From Phycisphaerales bacterium (GTDB taxonomy: Bacteria > Planctomycetota > Phycisphaerae > Phycisphaerales > UBA1924), in assembly GCA_023382935.1 (NCBI GenBank), contig JAHDXL010000009.1, positions 1-64,000 on the forward strand: a DNA stretch of 64,000 nucleotides. The letters run 5' to 3'. The position numbers were made by a program, and so were the translations under genes. The notes under the pieces were generated by a model. That model was not told the origin of the DNA. It searched no databases and saw only the letters and a program-made list of their open reading frames with translations. The stretch's first letter is position 1, and each line of letters begins with the position of its first letter. Shown here piece after piece: positions 1 to 8,777 of this stretch.

Positions 1-178
1 CCGCGTCGGCCGACGCGGCTCTGATCGATGGACACTCGATCGTCAGCATTTCGTGTGATTGCGTACCCAGCCGCGTCGGCCGACGCGGCTCTGATCGATG
101 GACACCAGCACCGTCATCGCCGCGGGCCTGACCACCGGAACTGCCGCGTCGGCCGACGCGGCTCTGATCGATGGACAC
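1..178. CRISPR. CRISPR array fragment (three repeats, two spacers), cut by the window edge
   Basis: Three copies of the same 35-36 base unit lie at 1-35, 70-105 and 143-178. They are separated by two unrelated sequences of about 34 and 37 bases, which is the geometry of a CRISPR array. The first 20 bases of the unit form a perfect palindrome (GCCGCGTCGGCCGACGCGGC), giving a strong hairpin, and the unit ends in GATCGATGGACAC. The first copy lacks its leading G because the window begins there, so the array probably continues to the left. No cas gene is visible, so the type and transcription direction cannot be assigned. The last repeat runs directly into a truncated transposase. A 12-base match to the repeat core (GGCCGACGCGGC, 214-225) follows at slightly irregular spacing and may be a degenerate fourth repeat or chance. 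Confidence 0.8.
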
Positions 179-189
179 AGTCTGCGGCG

Positions 190-833
190 CGCCACCCCGC
201 CCCAAGCCTGCACGGCCGACGCGGCCGTCGAGCGCTGGCGGAAGAAGGACTGGCCGCGCATCAAAAAAGGCGCGGCGGCTGAACGCCACCATCGTTGTGC
301 TCGACGAATCCGGGTTCATGCTCCATCCCCTGGTGCGTCGCTCGTGGGCCCCGCGCGGACAGACGCCCATCGTCCGCTGCTGGGACCGGCGCGACCGGCT
401 GAGCGTGATCGGCGCCATCACCGTGCCGCCCTCGCGTGAACGCCACCGTCTGTCGGCGGTCTTCCGCATCCACACCAAGAACGTCAAGACTCCCCGGGCG
501 ACCGAGTTCCTGCGGATCCTGGACCGGCACGTGCGCGGGCCGCTCGTTATGGTGCTCGACCGGCTCAACGTGTACCGGGCAGCGGTGAGACGCTGGCGCG
601 CCTCCCGCCCGCCGGGGGCGCCCCGCGTCGGCGTCGAGTGGCTCCCGCCCTACGCGCCGGACCTCAACCCCGCCGAGCAGCTGTGGAACAACGGCAAGCG
701 CACCGACCCGGCCAACCTCTCCCCCGCCGACCGCGACGACCTGCGCGGCCACGTCCGCCGCTCGCTCATCCGCCAGCGGTGCTCCCCGAACCTGCTCGCT
801 TCCGCCTTCGATCACGCCGGGCTCCCGCTGTGA
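190..833 (+). pseudogene. IS630-family transposase, 5'-truncated and frameshifted
   Basis: The DDE domain of an IS630-type transposase is recognisable. It has the first Asp in VVLDESGFMLHP followed by SWAPRGQTP, the second Asp in VMVLDRLNVY, and the Glu in PPYAPDLNPAEQLWNNGKR. The N-terminal helix-turn-helix half is missing; only VERWRKKDWPRIKK remains before the catalytic domain. That part is in a different frame from the rest. The two frames meet at a run of six A at about 263-268, where a +1 (or -2) shift would restore one protein. Some IS630 elements use programmed frameshifting, but with the 5' half lost here the simplest reading is a decayed copy. The left side abuts the CRISPR repeat at 178, so the transposon end or the array end was lost by rearrangement. 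Terminal inverted repeats were not identified. Confidence 0.8.
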
Positions 834-903
834 CTCGCTCTGGCTATCGTTACGCAGAGATCAATAACCAGAGAATCGGCCGCCGGAACGGCTCTGGCGG
901 CCC

Positions 904-929
904 GGATTCGACGGTTTGAACCCGTTCCG
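904..929. repeat. Left copy of 26-bp imperfect direct repeat
   Basis: This 26-base sequence begins GGATTCGACGGTTTGAA. It matches the sequence at 4019-4044 at 23 of 26 positions in the same orientation. The two copies bracket the AbiE toxin-antitoxin pair and the integrase-core transposase, so they could be attachment or target-duplication sites of a mobile unit about 3.1 kb long. A palindrome (GGCCGCC/GGCGGCC, 878-902) lies just to the left. Confidence 0.5.
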
Positions 930-1036
930 ATCGGGCATACCGCTGGTTAACAGGTTTCCAGAACAGAGAGCGCACGGGTTGGTCGGGATGGGTTGCAGCC
1001 CGACTGGATAGGACCGTCTATACTCGCCGATACCGA

Positions 1037-1687
1037 GTGACGGTTGTATCCATGCGCCCGACGCCTCCCACCATCCCGAGCCGCGCGACCCCGGCCATCC
1101 GCACGGCACGCCGGCTCTTCGAGAAGGCCGGCGGCACCCTGCGCACCAGCGCCGCGATCAGGGCCGGCATCCACCCGCGCACGCTCTACGCCATGCGGGA
1201 TGCCGGGATCATCGTTTCGATCGGCCGCGGCCTCTACCGGCTGGCTGACGCTCCACCGCTCTCCAACCCCGACCTTGTGGTGGTGGCGCAGCAAGTCCCG
1301 AGGGCGGTGGTGTGCCTGGTCTCGGCGCTCGCGTTCCACGGCCTGACGACGCAGATCCCGCACCACGTCGACATCGCGCTCGCGCCCGGCAGCCGCACGC
1401 CCGCGATTCACCACCCGCCGATCCGGGTCTTCCGCTTCGGCGGCGGGTCGCTCACCTCCGGCGTCGAGCGTCACAGGATCGACGGCGTCCCTGTCCGCGT
1501 CTTCTGCCCCGCCAAGACGGTCGCCGACTGCTTCAAGTTCCGCAATCGGATCGGCATCGACATCGCGGTCGAGGCGCTGCGGGCGTTCCTGCGCCGGCGC
1601 GGCAGCACCACCGACGAAGTCCTCCGCTTCGCCGACATCGACCGCGTGCGGAGTGTCATGATTCCGTACCTCGAGGCCGCGCTGTGA
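1037..1687 (+). CDS. abiEi: AbiEi-type antitoxin (type IV toxin-antitoxin)
   Basis: This 216-residue protein has an N-terminal winged-helix region (about residues 22-70, with RTARRLFEKAGGTLRTSAAI and RTLYAMRDAG). A C-terminal domain typical of AbiEi antitoxins follows (VSALAFHGLTTQIPHHVDIA; CPAKTVADCFKFRNRIGIDIA). Family members bind inverted repeats in their own promoter, repress the operon, and counteract the nucleotidyltransferase toxin AbiEii. The GTG at 1037 gives the longest reading, and an ATG at 1052 is a possible alternative. The stop codon overlaps the toxin start by 4 bases (GTGA), the usual translational coupling of this pair. The identification is by motif and gene order. Confidence 0.85.
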   Translation: MTVVSMRPTPPTIPSRATPAIRTARRLFEKAGGTLRTSAAIRAGIHPRTLYAMRDAGIIVSIGRGLYRLADAPPLSNPDLVVVAQQVPRAVVCLVSALAFHGLTTQIPHHVDIALAPGSRTPAIHHPPIRVFRFGGGSLTSGVERHRIDGVPVRVFCPAKTVADCFKFRNRIGIDIAVEALRAFLRRRGSTTDEVLRFADIDRVRSVMIPYLEAAL

Positions 1688-2598
1688 CCAAGGGCAACCC
1701 GACCAACATCGCGGCGTCGGTGCACGCTCGTCTGATGAACCTCGCCCGCGCCGAGGGCCGGTCGTTCAACGACCTTCTGCAGTTCTACGCGATGGAGCGG
1801 TTCCTATACCGCCTGTCGCGCTCGGACCATGCGGCGAAGTTCATCCTCAAGGGCGCGCTGCTGCTGCGGGTGTGGGACCCCGGGGCGTACCGGACGACGC
1901 GCGACATCGACCTTCTCGGCCGCATGGCCAGCGACGTGGACGCGGTCGCCGCGGCGATCGCATCCGTGTGTCGCGAGCGCGTCGCCGCCGACGGCCTGGA
2001 GTTCGACGCCGCGAGCGTCCGCGGCGAGCGGATCGTCGAGGACGCGGAGTACGAAGGCGTGCGGGTTACCTTCCCCGGGCGGCTCGGCAACGCCCGCGTC
2101 ACCATGCAGATCGACGTAGGTTTTGGCGACGCCGTGACGCCGGCGCCCAAACAGGTCGCCTACCCGGTGCTCCTCGACATGCCCGCGCCCCGGCTCAGGG
2201 CCTACCCGCCGGAGACCGTGATCGCCGAGAAGTTCGAGGTCATGCTCAAGCGTGGCGACGCCAACAGCCGGATGAAGGACTTCCACGACGTCTGGTGGGT
2301 GGCGCAGCATCGGGAGTTCGACGGAGCGGTGCTCGCCAAAGCCATCCGGAGCACCTGTGCGAAGCGAGGGACCGAGATCCTCGCGCGGCCGACGGCGCTG
2401 AGCAAAGCGTTCGCCGAGAGTTCCGCAAAGGCCGCGCAGTGGCGGGCCTTCCGGCGGCGGCTGAATCCAACTTCATGCCCCGAGGGCTTCGCCGAAGTCA
2501 TGGCGGCCGTGAGGGAGTTCCTTCAGGTCATCGCCGCGGCGATCGCGGCGGGGGAGCCGTTCGAGCGGACGTGGACGCCGCCGGGTCCGTGGCGGTAG
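1684..2598 (+). CDS. abiEii: AbiEii-type nucleotidyltransferase toxin
   Basis: This 304-residue protein has the AbiEii/DUF1814 layout. The nucleotidyltransferase core is KGALLLRVWD followed by RTTRDIDLLG (metal-binding Asp near residues 74 and 76). The downstream motifs are PPETVIAEKFEVMLKRGDANSRMKDFHD. Members of this family act as bacteriostatic abortive-infection toxins; MenA-type relatives transfer nucleotides to tRNA acceptor stems. The GTG start overlaps the antitoxin stop by 4 bases, and the gene ends in TAG. Catalytic motifs are complete, so the pair looks functional. It sits between the direct repeats at 904 and 4019 together with a transposase, which suggests acquisition as a mobile cassette. 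Confidence 0.87.
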   Translation: MTKGNPTNIAASVHARLMNLARAEGRSFNDLLQFYAMERFLYRLSRSDHAAKFILKGALLLRVWDPGAYRTTRDIDLLGRMASDVDAVAAAIASVCRERVAADGLEFDAASVRGERIVEDAEYEGVRVTFPGRLGNARVTMQIDVGFGDAVTPAPKQVAYPVLLDMPAPRLRAYPPETVIAEKFEVMLKRGDANSRMKDFHDVWWVAQHREFDGAVLAKAIRSTCAKRGTEILARPTALSKAFAESSAKAAQWRAFRRRLNPTSCPEGFAEVMAAVREFLQVIAAAIAAGEPFERTWTPPGPWR

Positions 2599-2616
2599 CG
2601 GTTGTCGGGGCACGCA

Positions 2617-3705
2617 TCATGCTGCCATCCGGTCGTAGTGCCGCAGCACCCCGCCCAGGCGGGTGCGGCACCGCACGGGGCCGGCGCGTCCCGCGAACCG
2701 AGGTGGGGGCGGTGGGGCTCGCCCCGCCGGCGGCCGATGCCCGATCGACGAGTGCGGACGCTCCGCGTTGTAGTGCTCGATGAACTCCGCCATCAGGTGA
2801 TCCAGGTGCTCCCGCCCGCACACAATGAACCGGTCCAGGCACTCGACCTGCAACGTCTGGATGAACCGCTCCACGTGCGCGTTGAGGTTCGGGGCGCAGT
2901 GCGGCAGGCGCACGGGCGTGATCCCCTCGGCCCGCAGCGCCCCGTCGAAGGCCTTCCCGAACTTCTGGTCGCGGTCGCGGGTCAGCACGCGGCACGCCGC
3001 CCCCCACGTCCCCTGCGTGCCCGACTCCGCCTTGAACCGCGCCACCTGCTCGGCGACCCACGCCGCGTCGGGGTGCTCGGTGCTGGTGGTGGCGATCGCC
3101 CGGCGCGTGGCGACGTTCACGAACACCAGCAGGAACGCATCGCGGAATCCTCGCAGCGTCAGCACCCGCTGCTGCACGAAGTCGCACGCCCACAGGGTCT
3201 TGGCGTGTGAGGCGATGAACTCCTCCCACGTCCGCTCGCCGCGCTCGGGCGCGGTAGGCAGTCCGGCCTCGCGCAGGATGTTGACGACGGTGCTGCGGGA
3301 CACCTTGATGTGGAGTTTCTTGAGTTCGCCCAGAATCCGCGTGTACCCCCAGCCCGTCTCCCGGGCGATCCGCAGCACCACCCGCCGGACATCATCCGGG
3401 GTGCGCGGGCGACCCGCGCGGCGGACCCCGGGCCGCTTCTTGGGGCGCTTGCGGTCGGCCTCACGTATCCAGCGCATCACCGTCTCGGGCTGGGCGATCG
3501 AGACGATCGACCGCAGGGCCGACCCCAGCGGCTTGGCGAGTTTGGCCAGCCGGAAGCGCTCCTTGGCCGTCACACGCACCGCTCCCTGGATCTTTGACCG
3601 GAGGATCTCGTTCTCGGCCTTGAGGTACTGGACCTGGCGGCGGAGGTCGTCCCGGCCCGCCCCGGCCAGGACCCGGAGCAGGCGGAGGAAGGGGTTGGCG
3701 GGCAT
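2617..3705 (-). CDS. Integrase-core (rve/DDE) transposase, IS3-like
   Basis: This 362-residue protein consists of an N-terminal helical region (MPANPFLRLLRVLAGAG...DDLRRQVQYLKAENEIL, coiled-coil-like), an HTH segment (YTRILGELKKLHIKVSRSTV) and an rve integrase core. The catalytic acidic residues are visible in WACDFVQQ, LTRDRDQKFG and HVERFIQTLQVECLDRF. The ending HYNAERPHSSIGHRPP is characteristic. I chose the ATG at 3705 because the family signature begins there; the reading frame stays open upstream to 3789 without recognisable sequence. It runs convergent to abiEii, with stops 18 bases apart. This single-gene form is common in planctomycetes. Catalytic motifs are intact, and inverted repeats were not found. 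Confidence 0.85.
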   Translation of the reverse strand: MPANPFLRLLRVLAGAGRDDLRRQVQYLKAENEILRSKIQGAVRVTAKERFRLAKLAKPLGSALRSIVSIAQPETVMRWIREADRKRPKKRPGVRRAGRPRTPDDVRRVVLRIARETGWGYTRILGELKKLHIKVSRSTVVNILREAGLPTAPERGERTWEEFIASHAKTLWACDFVQQRVLTLRGFRDAFLLVFVNVATRRAIATTSTEHPDAAWVAEQVARFKAESGTQGTWGAACRVLTRDRDQKFGKAFDGALRAEGITPVRLPHCAPNLNAHVERFIQTLQVECLDRFIVCGREHLDHLMAEFIEHYNAERPHSSIGHRPPAGRAPPPPPRFAGRAGPVRCRTRLGGVLRHYDRMAA

Positions 3706-4018
3706 GGGTGGTTGTATACTGCCCGGCGATGGGAACACGGGCCGCAATCCCCTCGCCGACCCTCGCCTTCGCGGGCTCTGGACCCCCATCGTGCGCTCTC
3801 GACCTGTTCACCGGGACCGACCAGGTTTTGGCGGTGGCGGCGGTTAACGGGTGGAGAGCGCCGGATGGAGTATTTGCACCCCGCGGGCGGACTGGTTGGC
3901 GGGCGGCATTCGCCGCGGGCAAAGCCCCGCGCCGAACGCCGCTCACCCACCAACCGCGTTCTTGATAGCGCCAAGCCTGTTAAACAGCAGATTGAGGCCG
4001 ACATGGTGGCTCAGGGCA

Positions 4019-4044
4019 GGATTCGACGGTTCGAAACGGTTCCG
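4019..4044. repeat. Right copy of 26-bp imperfect direct repeat
   Basis: This sequence starts GGATTCGACGGTTCGAA and differs from 904-929 at only three positions (14, 18 and 20 of 26). It has the same orientation and is followed 15 bases later by the terminator at 4060. Together the copies bracket abiEi, abiEii and the rve transposase. Confidence 0.5.
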
Positions 4045-4059
4045 CACAGGGAGCTTCTG

Positions 4060-4087
4060 ACCGGCCCGCGAAAGCGGGCCGGTTTTG
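4060..4087 (+). terminator. Rho-independent terminator
   Basis: A perfect 10-base stem ACCGGCCCGC / GCGGGCCGGT closed by a GAAA tetraloop is followed by TTTGGTTT. This is a strong intrinsic terminator for plus-strand transcription. No intact plus-strand gene lies immediately upstream, so it may belong to a lost gene, a small RNA or the mobile unit's edge. Confidence 0.7.
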
Positions 4088-4389
4088 GTTTACGCACGCG
4101 GCGGTCTCCGGGCGTGCGGCGGTGCTCACGGCAGATCGCGCAAAGTCCCGTCAGGATTGGGGTTTGCGCCGCACGGTCGCCAGCCAGCCAGAGTCACCGC
4201 GCTCTCCGTTTGCATTGGTCCATCGGGCGGGCGACGAGAACCCCGGGCGTTCGCGTCGGCCTCTCGGCCGAACCTCTCAAACTCTCTGACTCTCTCGGTT
4301 AGCGCCGCGGCCGATTTGACGCGGGGTTCCGATCGGGGGTGGGCTGGGATCGGAACGGTCCCGAAATGGAGAGGGCACCCGTCCAGCAC

Positions 4390-4788
4390 TCATGCGATTT
4401 GCGGTCTCTCCCCACGCAACAACGCGGCAACAGTCGGCCATGTCGCGGGGTACATCGGCTCGCTCGGGCTGGCGGACTTGGGCCGGGTTGCGGTGTACTG
4501 GCGAGTGGCCTTGATGAGGGCATAGGGCTTGCCGAGTTCCTTGGCAATCTGGAGCTCCGTCTCCACTCCCTTGGCCTGGTGCGTCTGGTCGCCGCAAAGG
4601 ACAATCACGAAGTCCGACTCCCCGATCAACCGGCGCGCTTCGGCAACCCACCGCTCAGACAGGGCCTGCTGGATCGAGTTGTCGCTGAAGGTGAACGGGC
4701 AAGCGGGGTCGCCCGCCTGGGTCACCAGGTTCTGCTTCACGTCTCGGTCGGCGATGTCGAAACTGATGAACACCCGCTTCTTGGCCAC
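4390..4788 (-). CDS. TIR-like (MTH538/ThsB-type) protein A, divergent
   Basis: This 132-residue protein has the MTH538 TIR-like fold pattern. It begins KKRVFISFDIADRD, then has a mid-strand FVIVLCGDQTH and a conserved VETELQIAKELGKPYALI, with Glu78 at the position of the putative NADase glutamate. It is paralogous to the protein at 5316-5705: ISFD...PF.F.D.S.Q...W....R, IVLCG..TH, GV..EL.IA.E.GKPY. TIR-like ThsB proteins sense phage and make cyclic ADP-ribose-type signals from NAD in Thoeris defence. This gene is read away from the other two TIR genes and the caspase gene, with about 105 bases between starts, so they probably share a promoter region. Its activity is inferred. Confidence 0.8.
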   Translation of the reverse strand: MAKKRVFISFDIADRDVKQNLVTQAGDPACPFTFSDNSIQQALSERWVAEARRLIGESDFVIVLCGDQTHQAKGVETELQIAKELGKPYALIKATRQYTATRPKSASPSEPMYPATWPTVAALLRGERPQIA

Positions 4789-4893
4789 ACGCCACCTCCC
4801 TTCCGCGAGGATGAACGCTCTATCATCTGCGGTTCATCCTCGGATCACGGGGGATCGTACCCGGGGCACCCCGCCCCGGCGTTGGAGGGCCCA

Positions 4894-5298
4894 ATGCCGG
4901 CACTTCGGGTCTATTCCGTCTTCATCTGCCACGACTGGGAGTACAGCGAGGACTATTACCGTATCTGCGAGTTTCTCAACCAGGCGCGGAATTTCGACTG
5001 GGAAAACCTGAGCGTGCCGGAGCACGATCCGCTCGACAGCCGGGATCGCCTCGAGTACCACCTCCGAAACCAGATACGGCCCGCCGACGTGATGCTCGTC
5101 CTCGCCGGCATGTACTCGGCCCACAGTGGTTGGATGGATTGGGAGTTGCAGTTCGCGCGGCGCATTGGGAAACCGATCATCGCGATTAGGCCGTGGGGGA
5201 GCGAACGACTACCCCAGGTCGTCCAAGACAACGCCACAGAGATCGTGGGCTGGAGTACCGGCACCATCGTGGGTGCAATCCGGCGGTGGGGCCGCTGA
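4894..5298 (+). CDS. thsB: ThsB-like TIR protein B
   Basis: This 134-residue protein closely follows the classical ThsB pattern. It begins VYSVFICHDWEYSEDYYRIC, then has LSVPEHDPLD, LRNQIRPADVMLVLAGMY, SGWMDWELQFARRIGKPIIAI and RPWGSERLPQ, and ends EIVGW. Glu84 in the DWELQ segment is the likely catalytic residue. ThsB proteins produce a cyclic nucleotide signal from NAD on infection, which activates the partner effector. I chose the ATG at 4894 because GGAGGG lies 4 bases upstream and homology starts there. Two further genes follow in the same direction with short gaps (17 and 5 bases). The caspase-like gene as partner points to the Thoeris variant with a protease effector. Confidence 0.85.
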   Translation: MPALRVYSVFICHDWEYSEDYYRICEFLNQARNFDWENLSVPEHDPLDSRDRLEYHLRNQIRPADVMLVLAGMYSAHSGWMDWELQFARRIGKPIIAIRPWGSERLPQVVQDNATEIVGWSTGTIVGAIRRWGR

Positions 5299-5315
5299 AC
5301 TACGGAGGCAGTCGA

Positions 5316-5705
5316 ATGGCCAGGAAACGCGCGTTCATCAGCTTCGACTACGACCACGACTCCGATGCGAAACTCATGCTCACCGGGCAGGCCAAGCACC
5401 CGGATACCCCCTTCGATTTTGCGGATGGCTCGGTGCAGGACCACCTTCCCGGCGACTGGAAAGAGAAGGTCCGCCGCAGGATGGACAACATCGACGTGGT
5501 GATCGTGCTGTGCGGCCAGTTCACTCATCTCGCCAGCGGCGTCGCTGCCGAGTTGAGCATCGCCCGCGAGAAGGGCAAGCCCTACTTCCTGCTCGCGGCC
5601 TACTCGGACAAGAACTGCACCAAGCCGACGACTGCGCTTCCCGACGACAAGGTCTACCGCTGGACGTGGGACAACCTCAAGGCCCTCATAGGCGGGGCGA
5701 GGTAA
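5316..5705 (+). CDS. TIR-like (MTH538/ThsB-type) protein C
   Basis: This 129-residue protein begins ARKRAFISFDYDHDSDAK and carries VVIVLCGQFTHLASGVAAELSIAREKGKPYFLL, with Glu79 at the putative catalytic position. It is a paralogue of protein A on the opposite strand and more distant from protein B. A clear ribosome-binding site (GGAGG, 5304-5308) precedes the ATG at 5316, and the stop lies 5 bases before the caspase gene. Thoeris loci often carry several divergent TIR genes, thought to widen the range of phages recognised. The specific trigger of this copy is unknown. Confidence 0.82.
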   Translation: MARKRAFISFDYDHDSDAKLMLTGQAKHPDTPFDFADGSVQDHLPGDWKEKVRRRMDNIDVVIVLCGQFTHLASGVAAELSIAREKGKPYFLLAAYSDKNCTKPTTALPDDKVYRWTWDNLKALIGGAR

Positions 5706-5710
5706 CCGCG

Positions 5711-6670
5711 ATGCGACGTGCTCTCTGCGTCGGTATTGACCTCTACTCCTTCGGCTCACTGCGAGGCTGCGTTTCCGACGCCCAGCGGATGTGCGCCCTG
5801 CTCGGCAAGCACGAGGACGGACAACCGAACTTCGACTGCCGCGCCCTCAAGGCGACACTGGATGGCAAGGGCGACAAGATAGGGCGTGCGGAGCTTCGAA
5901 GGGCGGTCAAGGATCTCTTCTCGCAACCAGCGGAAGTCGCCCTCTTTCACTTCTCTGGGCACGGCACGGTCAACGACCTCGACGGTTACCTCGTCACGCA
6001 GGATGCCGCCGCCTATGACGAAGGGCTCGCGATGAGCGAAGTCCTCAAGATGGCAAATGACTCGAAGACTGAAGAGGTCGTCGTGCTTCTCGATTGCTGC
6101 CACGCTGGGAATCTCGGCAATCCGCCGGTCGTCAACAACGCCCGTGCGATGCTGCGGGAAGGCGTTTCGATCCTGACCGCGAGCCGTGGCGATCAAGTCT
6201 CTGTAGAATCGAATGGCGCAGGTTTGTTTACGTCGCTGGTGGGCGATGCTATGGAGGGCGGAGCAGCCGACTTGCTCGGTGACGTGACCGCTCCAGCGAT
6301 TTATGCCTTTGTGGAGGGCGCGCTTGGCGCCTGGGATCAACGACCATTGTTCAAATCCCACGTCTCGAAGGTCATCCCATTGCGGCGCTGTAAACCTCCG
6401 GTCGAGACGACCATTCTCCGAGAGCTTCCCACGCTGTTCCCTGTTCCTGCCGAGGACCGTGCCCTTGACCCGACGTACGAGCGTACTTCGAGCAGCGCCC
6501 TCCCCGCGAACGTCGCGGTATTCGACAAGCTTCTTCAACTCTCTCGCGTCCACCTCGTGACGCCGGTCGAGGTGAAGTACATGTACGACGCCGCGATGCA
6601 GTCAAAGGCGTGTCGATTGACCGCCGCCGGGCGCTACTACTGGCGGCTCGCCCGCGACAACCGTCTGTGA
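5711..6670 (+). CDS. Caspase-like protease (peptidase C14), probable TIR-activated effector
   Basis: This 319-residue protein begins RRALCVGIDLYSFGSLRGCVSDAQ, the usual start of bacterial metacaspase-like proteins. The catalytic dyad is visible as His84 in FHFSGHG and Cys130 in VVVLLDCCHAG. The caspase domain covers about residues 1-210. The C-terminal 110 residues (ILRELPTLFPVPAEDR to RYYWRLARDN) match nothing I recognise and may sense the signal. Coming directly after two TIR genes (5-base gap), it fits the effector of type IV Thoeris, where TIR-made N7-cADPR activates a caspase-like protease that kills the infected cell. The link to that signal here is inferred from gene order only. Confidence 0.85.
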   Translation: MRRALCVGIDLYSFGSLRGCVSDAQRMCALLGKHEDGQPNFDCRALKATLDGKGDKIGRAELRRAVKDLFSQPAEVALFHFSGHGTVNDLDGYLVTQDAAAYDEGLAMSEVLKMANDSKTEEVVVLLDCCHAGNLGNPPVVNNARAMLREGVSILTASRGDQVSVESNGAGLFTSLVGDAMEGGAADLLGDVTAPAIYAFVEGALGAWDQRPLFKSHVSKVIPLRRCKPPVETTILRELPTLFPVPAEDRALDPTYERTSSSALPANVAVFDKLLQLSRVHLVTPVEVKYMYDAAMQSKACRLTAAGRYYWRLARDNRL

Positions 6671-6826
6671 TGGTGAAGCCCGTCTCTGGTTGACGCACGG
6701 TTCCGATCGCCTGCCTTTCGCCACATTCCGAGCCGTTTGCGTAGATGGTGGTTGACAGCCCGCTGCCTGGCGGGCGGGCACAACTGACCATCGCCGGCCC
6801 AACCGGGCTCGCGCACGGACGCACTC

Positions 6827-7066
6827 ATGACCATCGACCACGCCGAGGCGGTCGAGCGCGATGACCTCGCGCCACACCATCCCCTCACCCCCGCCCGGCG
6901 GCTACGGATCATCGCGGAGATCCTAGCCGAGGGCGTGCGCCGGCGGCGCGAGGATGCCCGCCGCATGGGCGATTCGGGGGACATTTCGCTCCCGCCAGAA
7001 AGAGAGGAATCTGGACTTGAACTCTTGGGACCGGCTCGCCTTGATCGTCCGCTCCAGGGCGGTTGA
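6827..7066 (+). CDS. Small hypothetical protein upstream of a DUF2924 fragment
   Basis: This is an open frame of 79 residues with a charged helical core (LTPARRLRIIAEILAEGVRRRREDARR) and a plausible protein-like composition. I do not recognise the family. It lies 24 bases before the DUF2924 fragment, in the same direction, so the two probably belonged to one mobile cassette. DUF2924 genes in planctomycetes often sit beside serine recombinases, and none is left here. Confidence 0.45.
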   Translation: MTIDHAEAVERDDLAPHHPLTPARRLRIIAEILAEGVRRRREDARRMGDSGDISLPPEREESGLELLGPARLDRPLQGG

Positions 7067-7290: not shown

Positions 7291-8777
7291 TTCTGGTGTC
7301 CGGCAGCATCTACTCGGCGTGCCGGTTCTTCGAGATGTTCCAGAAGACCGACCTCGCCGGGAAGTGCGCCATCGTGACGTCGTACAAGCCGTTGGCCAGC
7401 GACATCAAGGGGCAGGACTCCGGCGAGGGCAAGAACGAGAAGCTGCGGCAGTACGACATCTACCGCAAGATGCTCGCCCAGCACTTCAACGAGCCGGAGG
7501 ATGCGGCCGCGGCGAAGGTTGAGCAGTTCGAGAAAGAGGTCAAGAAGCGGTTTATCGACGAGCCGGGGCAGATGAAGCTGCTGATCGTGGTGGACAAGCT
7601 GCTCACAGGCTTCGATGCCCCGCCGGCGACGTACCTCTACATCGACAAGCAGATGCGCGACCACGGGCTCTTCCAGGCGATCTGCCGCGTGAACAGGCTG
7701 GACGGCGAGGACAAGGAGTACGGGTACATCATCGACTACAAGGACCTGTTCAAGTCTCTTGAGAAGTCGATCAAGGACTACACGGGCGAGGCGTTTGACC
7801 AGTTCGACGCGGAGGATGTCGCCGATCTGTTGAAGGATCGTCTGGAGAAGGGGCGGGAGCGGCTGGAAGAGGTGCGCGAGGCGATCAAGGCCCTGTGCGA
7901 ACCGGTCGAGCCTCCGAAGGACACGCGGGCGTATCTGCGGTACTTCGTGACCGCGGACACCGCCGACGGCGAGCAGATCGAAGAGAACGAGCCGAAGCGC
8001 GTGGCCCTCTACAAGCTCGCGGCGGCTTTCCTGCGGGCGTATGCGAACCTGGCCAATGAGATGGCTCAGGCCGGGTACTCGGACACCGAAGCCAAGGCCG
8101 TCAAGGACGAGGTGGGCCACTACGAGAAAGTCCGCGAAGAGGTCAAGCTCGCCAGCGGCGACTACATCGACATGAAGATGTACGAGCCGGCCATGCGGCA
8201 CCTGTTGGACACGTACATCCGGGCGGAGGACAGCCAGAAGGTCTCGGCGTTCGACGATCTGACGCTGGTGCAGTTGATCGTGGAGCGCGGGGAGGCCGCG
8301 ATGGACGCGCTGCCGGACGGCATCCGGGACAACAAGGAGGCGATGGCGGAGACCATCGAGAACAACGTTCGACGGGTGATCATTGACGAGATGGCCGTCA
8401 ACCCGAAGTACTACGAGAAGATGTCGGAGTTGCTTGACGCCTTGATCCAGCAGAGAAAGCAGGAGGCGATCGACTACAAGGAGTACCTCAAGCGGATCGT
8501 GGCGCTGACGAAGCAGGTGAAGGCTCCCGAGACGCAGGCGTCGTATCCGTCAACGGTGAACACCTCCGCCCGGCGTGCGATGTATGACAACCTCGGGCAG
8601 AACGCTGAGCTGGCGGTGCGCCTGGACGAGGCGATCTTGAATGTGAAGAAGGCGGACTGGCGGGGAAACAAGTTCAAGGAGAAGGAAGTCCGGACTGCGA
8701 TCAAGGCGGTCCTCGGCGGCGACGAAGGGCAGATTGAGAGGATCTTTGAGATCGTGAAGAGCCAACGTGATTACTGA
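7278..8777 (+). pseudogene. hsdR: Type I restriction endonuclease HsdR, C-terminal half only
   Basis: Translation from about 7278 gives GNAILVSGSIYSACRFFEMFQ, then VVDKLLTGFDAPPATYLYIDK and LFQAICRVNRLDGEDKEYGYIIDYKDLF. These are the late helicase motifs and C-terminal helical region of HsdR. The frame is open for about 500 codons to a TGA at 8775. The N-terminal PD-(D/E)XK nuclease and the Walker A/B part of the motor, roughly the first 500 residues, are gone. No hsdM or hsdS is present. It cannot restrict DNA alone, so it is a remnant. An in-frame ATG near 7296 could still drive translation of the stump. The gene overlaps the next gene by 11 bases, as in intact type I loci. Confidence 0.85.

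What the first reader, a model, noticed from the sequence alone, without database searches (positions are those of the whole stretch)
1..250. CRISPR array truncated against an IS630 transposase
Seen: three 36-base repeats with a 20-base perfect palindrome, then the interior of an IS630 transposase with no N-terminus. A 12-base identity to the repeat core (214-225) lies inside the transposase coding sequence, suggesting microhomology at the junction or a degenerate fourth repeat. No cas genes are in view.
Basis: partly seen in the sequence, partly recalled or inferred. Interest (0 to 1): 0.55.

Follow-up and report, generated by a model that had tools for sequence, protein, structure and literature searches.

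The report
Tail of a Cas12b CRISPR array
The first bases of this stretch are the cut-off end of a bacterial immune memory (a CRISPR array) whose Cas12b protein, guide-RNA helper and memory-making genes sit on another piece of the same genome assembly; it is a normal member of a known kind of system, made a little more interesting by memory-making genes that look recently swapped with a different CRISPR type.

Summary
Three 36-nt repeats (the first lacks one base because the contig starts there) and two spacers of 34 and 37 nt are followed by about 34 nt of spacer-like sequence and a left-truncated IS630 fragment. The window start is the contig start. In the whole genome the repeat occurs once more, at the start of contig C13. 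C13 carries cas4-cas1 (fused), cas2, cas12b (up to 1522 aa) and a tracrRNA, in the right orientation. The array is therefore the leader-distal end of a type V-B (Cas12b) system split by the assembly; the join itself is inferred. In 12 of 18 relatives fetched, a similar array lies downstream of cas12b on the same strand. A tracrRNA model built from those 12, ours left out, finds one place in our genome, beside cas12b. The 12-base identity inside the transposase is mostly native IS630 sequence; a fourth repeat is not supported. New detail: the cas4-cas1-cas2 cassette is 91% identical in DNA to that of a type I-G locus in another Phycisphaerae genome, with identity ending at about the cassette's borders, so modules were swapped recently. 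Swapping of this kind is already published. New member of a known kind; modest interest.

The parts
1..35 (+). CRISPR repeat, lacking its first base because the contig starts here
36..69 (+). spacer, 34 nt
   Evidence: no convincing protospacer
70..105 (+). CRISPR repeat, 36 nt, 20-nt palindrome at its 5' side
106..142 (+). spacer, 37 nt; its first 20 nt match one viral contig, but the match does not hold past them
143..178 (+). last CRISPR repeat, 36 nt
179..212 (+). 34 nt of spacer length with no good IS630 similarity: probable last spacer (its right edge may lie anywhere up to 216)
213..867 (+). left-truncated IS630-family element fragment: transposase without its N-terminal part, stop at 831-833, right flank similar to IS630 DNA in a relative up to about 867
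   Evidence: the frame break near the A run at 263-268 is also present in the two relatives examined

Best explanation
Window 1-212 is the leader-distal (oldest) end of the CRISPR array of a type V-B (Cas12b) system in a genome that is most likely of the Phycisphaerales (Planctomycetota). The assembly broke inside the array, so cas4-cas1, cas2, cas12b, tracrRNA and the first repeat are on contig C13, and the last repeats are at the start of contig C9, which is this window. How it works, mostly inferred from the family: the array is transcribed away from cas12b; the tracrRNA made from the gap between cas12b and the array pairs with the 3' half of each repeat, and a host RNase III is expected to cut the duplex; Cas12b with crRNA and tracrRNA then cuts matching double-stranded DNA with its single RuvC site. 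Cas4-Cas1 and Cas2 add new spacers at the cas12b side. Past the array's far end an IS630 fragment adjoins, so any array or trailer that once lay there is lost. Shown here: repeats, spacers, genes, catalytic residues, tracrRNA sequence with covariation, gene order in relatives. Inferred: that C13 and C9 join, transcription, cutting, spacer uptake.
For: Own-genome search finds the repeat only on C9 and at C13:14-51, plus a 33-nt partial match on C2. P0001 scores 951.8 bits to NF033949 Cas12b (cut-off 150), P0002 612.8 bits to NF049935 Cas4g/Cas1g (cut-off 560), and the 103-aa frame 42 bits to Cas2 (cut-off 24.5). The nearest solved chain is 9kln, 1496 aa, named by its C2c1 RuvC-like domain (E 6.7e-270). 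RuvC D817, E1228 and D1382 are present in 16 of 16 aligned proteins, ours included. In 12 of 18 relatives fetched the array lies 371-782 bp 3' of the cas12b match on the same strand (about 345 bp in ours) with a similar 36-nt repeat, less so in L044 and L046. The tracrRNA model made from those 12 gives one match in the whole genome (150 of 3170 first-look candidates were scored): C13:298-397(-), 75.5 bits, E 3.3e-13. Our sequence carries a compensatory change found in no other row (G-C to A-U at columns 39/78). Where repeats near an array end differ, it is the end far from cas12b.
Against: No contig spans the join; two separate arrays with the same repeat are possible. Spacer number is unknown. 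No protospacer was found, so no target or PAM is supported. Antirepeat pairing (19 of 21 positions with its own repeat) is only slightly better than with other loci's repeats (mean 16.2, maximum 18). Folding our gap alone gives nothing above shuffles (z 0.44). The start codon of cas12b is not settled (the longest frame opens with a GTG inside cas2). A genome of the same genus (G322) shows no DNA match over the cas part, so the locus is not general in the genus.
Confidence: 0.93

Rival explanations
1. The window array is a second, orphan V-B array elsewhere in the chromosome, served in trans by the C13 cas genes.
For: No contig joins C9 to C13.
Against: Both contigs end inside the same repeat in compatible orientation, and no other copies of the repeat were found in the genome; in the 12 relatives analysed the array is next to cas12b.
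Confidence: 0.06
2. The repeat is an ordinary dispersed or tandem element and not CRISPR.
For: Only three copies are in view and two related pieces lie on contig C2.
Against: Unique spacers of similar size, one further copy next to cas12b and tracrRNA, similar repeats in 2 to 76 copies next to cas12b in relatives.
Confidence: 0.005
3. The 12-mer at 213-224 is the remnant of a fourth repeat joined to IS630 by microhomology.
For: It starts 34 nt, one spacer length, after repeat 3, and the repeat and IS630 are alike there (10 of 12 against L080 at 214-225).
Against: The seven bases that should precede it in a repeat are not there (3 of 7 match); IS630 copies in relatives have CGACGCGGC or GGACGAGGCGGC natively.
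Confidence: 0.12

Closest known systems
Type V-B CRISPR-Cas (Cas12b, formerly C2c1)
   Same: Cas12b effector with intact RuvC residues, Cas4-Cas1 fusion, Cas2, tracrRNA between cas12b and a 36-nt-repeat array on the same strand.
   Different: The effector is about 1490-1522 aa, against 1108-1137 aa for the four other solved Cas12b chains listed. That is normal in this class: the 15 relatives aligned have open frames of 1460-1781 aa, and a 1496-aa relative has a solved structure (9kln).
Type I-G (formerly I-U) adaptation module
   Same: The Cas4-Cas1 and Cas2 proteins are 96% and 98% identical to those of a type I-G locus (L134); the best curated Cas4-Cas1 model is the I-G one.
   Different: Our locus shows no I-G effector match in the 16-kb contig and has a wholly different repeat.
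IS630 family transposons
   Same: DDE_3 domain and DNA similarity to copies in relatives, including the frame break at the A run.
   Different: The left end and N-terminal part are absent; a fragment.

Membership tests
CRISPR array | Identical direct repeats separated by unique spacers of similar length | tested here: met
CRISPR array | Spacers match mobile elements | tested here: inconclusive
   Phage records: rows listed (2 of 2, 10 of 77, 6 of 6) all had E 0.5 or worse. Viral contigs with one 20-mer each of the two spacers and of 179-198: 0, 1 and 0; the one hit (L108) fails past the 20-mer and is preceded by CGG, not by a T-rich PAM. Plasmids were not searched with spacers.
Type V-B | Cas12b effector in the genome | tested here: met
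Type V-B | RuvC catalytic residues intact (unlike inactive Cas12b3, passages of PMC12669027) | tested here: met
   assignment of the three motifs from the alignments and from recall
Type V-B | tracrRNA with antirepeat | tested here: met
   (sequence and covariation; expression not tested)
Type V-B | Cas4-Cas1 fusion and Cas2 | tested here: met
Type V-B | Window array and cas genes contiguous | tested here: inconclusive
   Both contigs end in the array; no spanning contig
Type V-B | T-rich PAM and double-stranded DNA cutting | not testable with these tools
   needs an assay
IS630 | DDE transposase of the family | tested here: met
   (NF033545 90.5 bits against a cut-off of 100: fragment)
IS630 | Both terminal inverted repeats and a TA target duplication | not tested
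   The left end is absent; the right end was only followed by similarity to about 867

The most novel reading that the evidence does not exclude
In this genome two type V systems talk to each other: a 24-nt piece of the Cas12b repeat (one mismatch), about 200 bp upstream of the cas12g gene on contig C2, is a lone repeat through which the Cas12b guide machinery regulates or processes transcripts of the Cas12g locus.
Probability: 0.04. Interest if true: 0.6.

Novelty: new member of a known kind. Interest (0 to 1): 0.3.

Why it matters
It settles a doubtful edge feature as the tail of a complete-looking Cas12b system and locates its genes and tracrRNA. For specialists, the useful parts are a well-supported tracrRNA for the large planctomycete Cas12b proteins and a sharply bounded, recent exchange of the spacer-acquisition cassette between type V-B and type I-G: nearly the same cassette must work with two unrelated repeats, which makes it a natural test of what Cas4-Cas1 and Cas2 recognise.

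Tried and rejected
A fourth, degenerate repeat at 213-224: rejected as the main reading after comparison with IS630 copies of relatives. A dispersed-element reading of the repeat: rejected (the 18-mer CATCGATCAGGGCCGCGT occurs in 1 of 298 genomes, ours). A second tracrRNA on C2: the model gives none in the whole-genome search and on L005 only a 14.4-bit match (E 0.68) far from the two pieces. A lone repeat on C2 as a guide against cas promoters: the sequences next to the two C2 pieces gave, beside themselves, 11- to 13-base matches of the kind that random 15-mers also give (mean 0.93 per random query) and, for one piece, a neighbouring duplicate of the same DNA; none is preceded by TTN (only the window, L004 and L005 were scanned). 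A V-B-like piece near cas12g as a shared feature: no match over the score limit in the other 6 of 7 cas12g loci, including the 2 others whose genome also has Cas12b. Spacer targets: no convincing match. Rfam: no match up to E 1 in L004:1-700. Single-sequence folding of the cas12b-array gap is not better than shuffles (z 0.44); the evidence for structure is comparative only. IS630 fragment against plasmids: no match. First genome-contig scan with Cas12b: no relative found. Paper searches (7 in all): Cas12b with Phycisphaerae 0 papers; 9kln or Cas12b since 2024 327 papers, 20 listed, none of those with 9kln; Cas12b with Planctomycet 9 (8 listed); with V-B2 2; with cryo-EM, tracrRNA and 'larger than' 2; Cas4-Cas1 fusion with V-B and I-U 0; adaptation module with C2c1, I-U and Cas4 1. 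Of the papers listed I looked into PMC12669027 only.

Full report
What is in the window. The window is bases 1-64000 of contig C9 of a 3.72-Mb, 35-contig genome, so its left edge is a contig end. Repeats lie at 1-35, 70-105 and 143-178. The unit is GCCGCGTCGGCCGACGCGGCTCTGATCGATGGACAC (36 nt); the first copy lacks its first base. Spacers are 34 and 37 nt. Shuffles of the window gave no match to the 35-mer.

Where the rest is. The own-genome search with window 1-1000 found one more copy, at C13:14-51 on the minus strand, near the very start of the 16,075-base contig C13, and a weaker 33-nt match on C2. On the minus strand of C13 (L004) lie, in order, cas4-cas1 (5258-7048), cas2 (4919-5230), cas12b (394-4962 from the first possible start), a gap of about 345 bp and the repeat, followed by 15 nt of a spacer and the contig end. 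Curated models agree: Cas12b 951.8 bits (cut-off 150), Cas4g/Cas1g 612.8 (cut-off 560), Cas2 42 (cut-off 24.5); PADLOC and Pfam agree. Read in the cas direction, C13 ends in repeat plus spacer and C9 begins in repeat plus spacer, same strand. The simple reading is one array broken by the assembly. No sequence spans the break, so this step is inferred.

Relatives. In 298 genomes of the class, 21 have Cas12b over the cut-off (24 at E 0.001 or better); of 14 control genomes 1 rings, none over the cut-off. I fetched stretches of 18 relatives. In 12 of them a 36-nt-repeat array lies 371-782 bp downstream of the cas12b match on the same strand, with repeats such as GCCGCGGAGGCCGACGCGGCCCTGATGAATGGACAC; those of L044 and L046 are less like ours. 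The other six were left out of that count: L040 (no array found, effector 25% identical over the matched part), L042 (arrays present but the effector match is only 26%), L043 (array beyond cas2, different gene order), L048 (only a 22-nt core found), L049 (distant system) and L052 (no array in the stretch; the contig begins about 780 bp from the cas12b match). The larger size of our Cas12b is usual here: the 15 relatives aligned have open frames of 1460-1781 aa and 34-47% identity to ours, and the three RuvC residues are kept in 16 of 16. A genome of the same genus (G322) has no DNA match over the cas part of C13.

tracrRNA. The gap between cas12b and array holds an antirepeat in 13 of 13 loci. 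Aligned 100-nt stretches share CCGAG, GTGTC, CCCC and GGCACTCGG motifs upstream of the antirepeat, with few exceptions. The consensus structure has 18 pairs, 7 with changes on both sides; ours alone has CCAAG/CTTGG for CCGAG/CTCGG, a compensatory change. A covariance model from the 12 relatives, ours left out, gives a single match in our genome at C13:298-397(-), 75.5 bits, E 3.3e-13 (150 of 3170 first-look candidates scored). It also finds the stretch in L043, L048 and L052, which were not used to build it, but not convincingly in L040, L042 or L049. Weak points: folding our gap alone shows nothing (z 0.44), and pairing with the own repeat (19 of 21) only slightly exceeds pairing with other loci's repeats.

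The right end. Similarity to IS630 copies of relatives begins at window 214-236 (5 of 7 loci tried), and 179-212 is 34 nt, a spacer length. The transposase lacks its N-terminal part; the frame break at the run of A (263-268) is present in both relatives examined and so is probably natural to these elements. The 12-mer shared with the repeat is mostly native IS630 sequence. In 10 of the 12 relatives I scored every repeat against its consensus: the five nearest cas12b (or all, where fewer) had no mismatch in 10 of 10, and mismatches, present in 5 of 10, were among the five farthest, in 4 of them in the last repeat itself. For L038 the script followed only 3 repeats of a 76-repeat array. So the window most likely shows the old end of the array; our last repeat is intact, as are those of half the relatives, which says nothing either way about truncation. 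No repeats lie beyond the fragment in the window at up to 3 mismatches.

A swapped acquisition cassette. A scan of named genomes with Cas4-Cas1 found 27 loci. The closest, L134 (JAEUIZ010000057.1, Phycisphaerae bacterium MAG-56), is 96% identical in Cas4-Cas1 and 98% in Cas2; the DNA is 91% identical over 2160 bp. The identity begins within about 30 bp of the start of cas4-cas1 and stops at the end of cas2. The stretch of L134 held has no Cas12b match; it has Cas5-6 of type I-G by profile, further stretches similar to Cas3, Cas8 and Cas7 of the type I-G locus L149, and a different repeat, GCTTCAATGGGACCGCGGCTGATCAGCCGCGGAGAC. Our Cas12b, by contrast, is at most 56% identical to the Cas12b hits in these named loci. 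A tree of 21 Cas4-Cas1 proteins (14 beside Cas12b, 7 beside type I-G genes) mixes the two kinds: 5 label changes at best, at least 3 forced by well-supported branches, no more clustering than in shuffles (130 of 500 as low), and ours is sister to L134 with support 99/98. Fifteen of the 36 loci looked at were left out: one gene was cut, and in 14 the neighbour was undecided, among them seven with only a Cas3-like match and two (L144, L146) with V-B-like repeats but no Cas12b match. Only 6 of 18 inner branches are well supported; L049 is a long branch; and in three V-B rows (L040, L042, L049) the Cas12b match is weak, so their label is less sure. This fits passages of PMC5704561 that I read: V-B Cas4 falls within the I-U branch without forming a clade, and adaptation modules are shuffled. 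Passages of PMC12669027 describe estimating such swaps and state that type V is comparatively common in Planctomycetota. So the principle is known; this pair is a recent, clean case.

Taxonomy. G125, of the same order as ours, has a contig of 421,240 bases with a 76-repeat array, as has JAHBWZ010000004.1 of Phycisphaeraceae bacterium ACE_PLA6, so our genome is most likely of the Phycisphaerales.

Second type V system. Contig C2 carries a Cas12g gene (PADLOC Cas12g 985.5 bits; solved relative 6xmf) followed by an array with another repeat. About 200 bp upstream of it lies GTCCATCGATCAGGGCCGCGTCGG, 23 of 24 with our repeat's complement. Its 18-mer core is found in no other of 298 genomes, and nothing like it passed the score limit in the other six Cas12g loci. 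I have no explanation beyond a stray remnant; a regulatory role is the novel case and is improbable.

Verdict. A member of type V-B whose array was cut by the assembly on the left and ends against an IS630 fragment on the right. Ordinary in kind; the swapped cassette and the clear tracrRNA give it modest interest.

Noticed in passing
L005:9944-12418 (+), contig C2, with array at L005:12631-13522: A second type V system, Cas12g with its own 36-nt-repeat array of at least 14 copies. Of 298 genomes of the class 16 match the Cas12g model at E 0.001, 7 of them over nearly the whole profile; 3 of those 7 also have Cas12b over the cut-off.
   Followed up: partly
L005:9726-9749 and L005:8814-8828 (C2:148228 and C2:147313): Two short pieces resembling the Cas12b-system repeat or antirepeat lie within 1.2 kb upstream of cas12g; with the C13 antirepeat they are the only exact matches to CATCGATCAGGNCCG in the genome (3 of 29 matches with up to one mismatch).
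   Followed up: partly
L004:4919-7048 against L134:8001-10083: The cas4-cas1-cas2 cassette is nearly identical to that of a type I-G locus, while the Cas12b is at most about 56% identical to the Cas12b hits in the named loci.
   Followed up: yes
window 1037-2598 (+): AbiEi/AbiEii type IV toxin-antitoxin pair right after the IS630 fragment.
   Followed up: partly
window 4390-4788 (-), 5193-5705 (+), 5126-6670 (+): Two small ThsB-like TIR proteins and a caspase-domain frame: a possible further defence cluster.
   Followed up: partly
window 7296-8777 (+): Only the C-terminal half of a type I restriction subunit (profile positions 540-1032 of 1034); C13 has a separate set, hsdM and hsdR by profile, hsdS by reading alone.
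   Followed up: partly
window 2617-3789 (-): Transposase with an integrase core (rve_3), a second mobile element near the array's end.
   Followed up: no
L004:13310-15034 (+): GmrSD N-terminal domain protein beside the cas and restriction genes.
   Followed up: no
window 106-142 against L108:3173-3192: The first 20 nt of spacer 2 equal a stretch of a viral contig whose reading resembles a DNA methylase motif (recalled, not tested); the match stops there, so it is probably conserved codons.
   Followed up: partly
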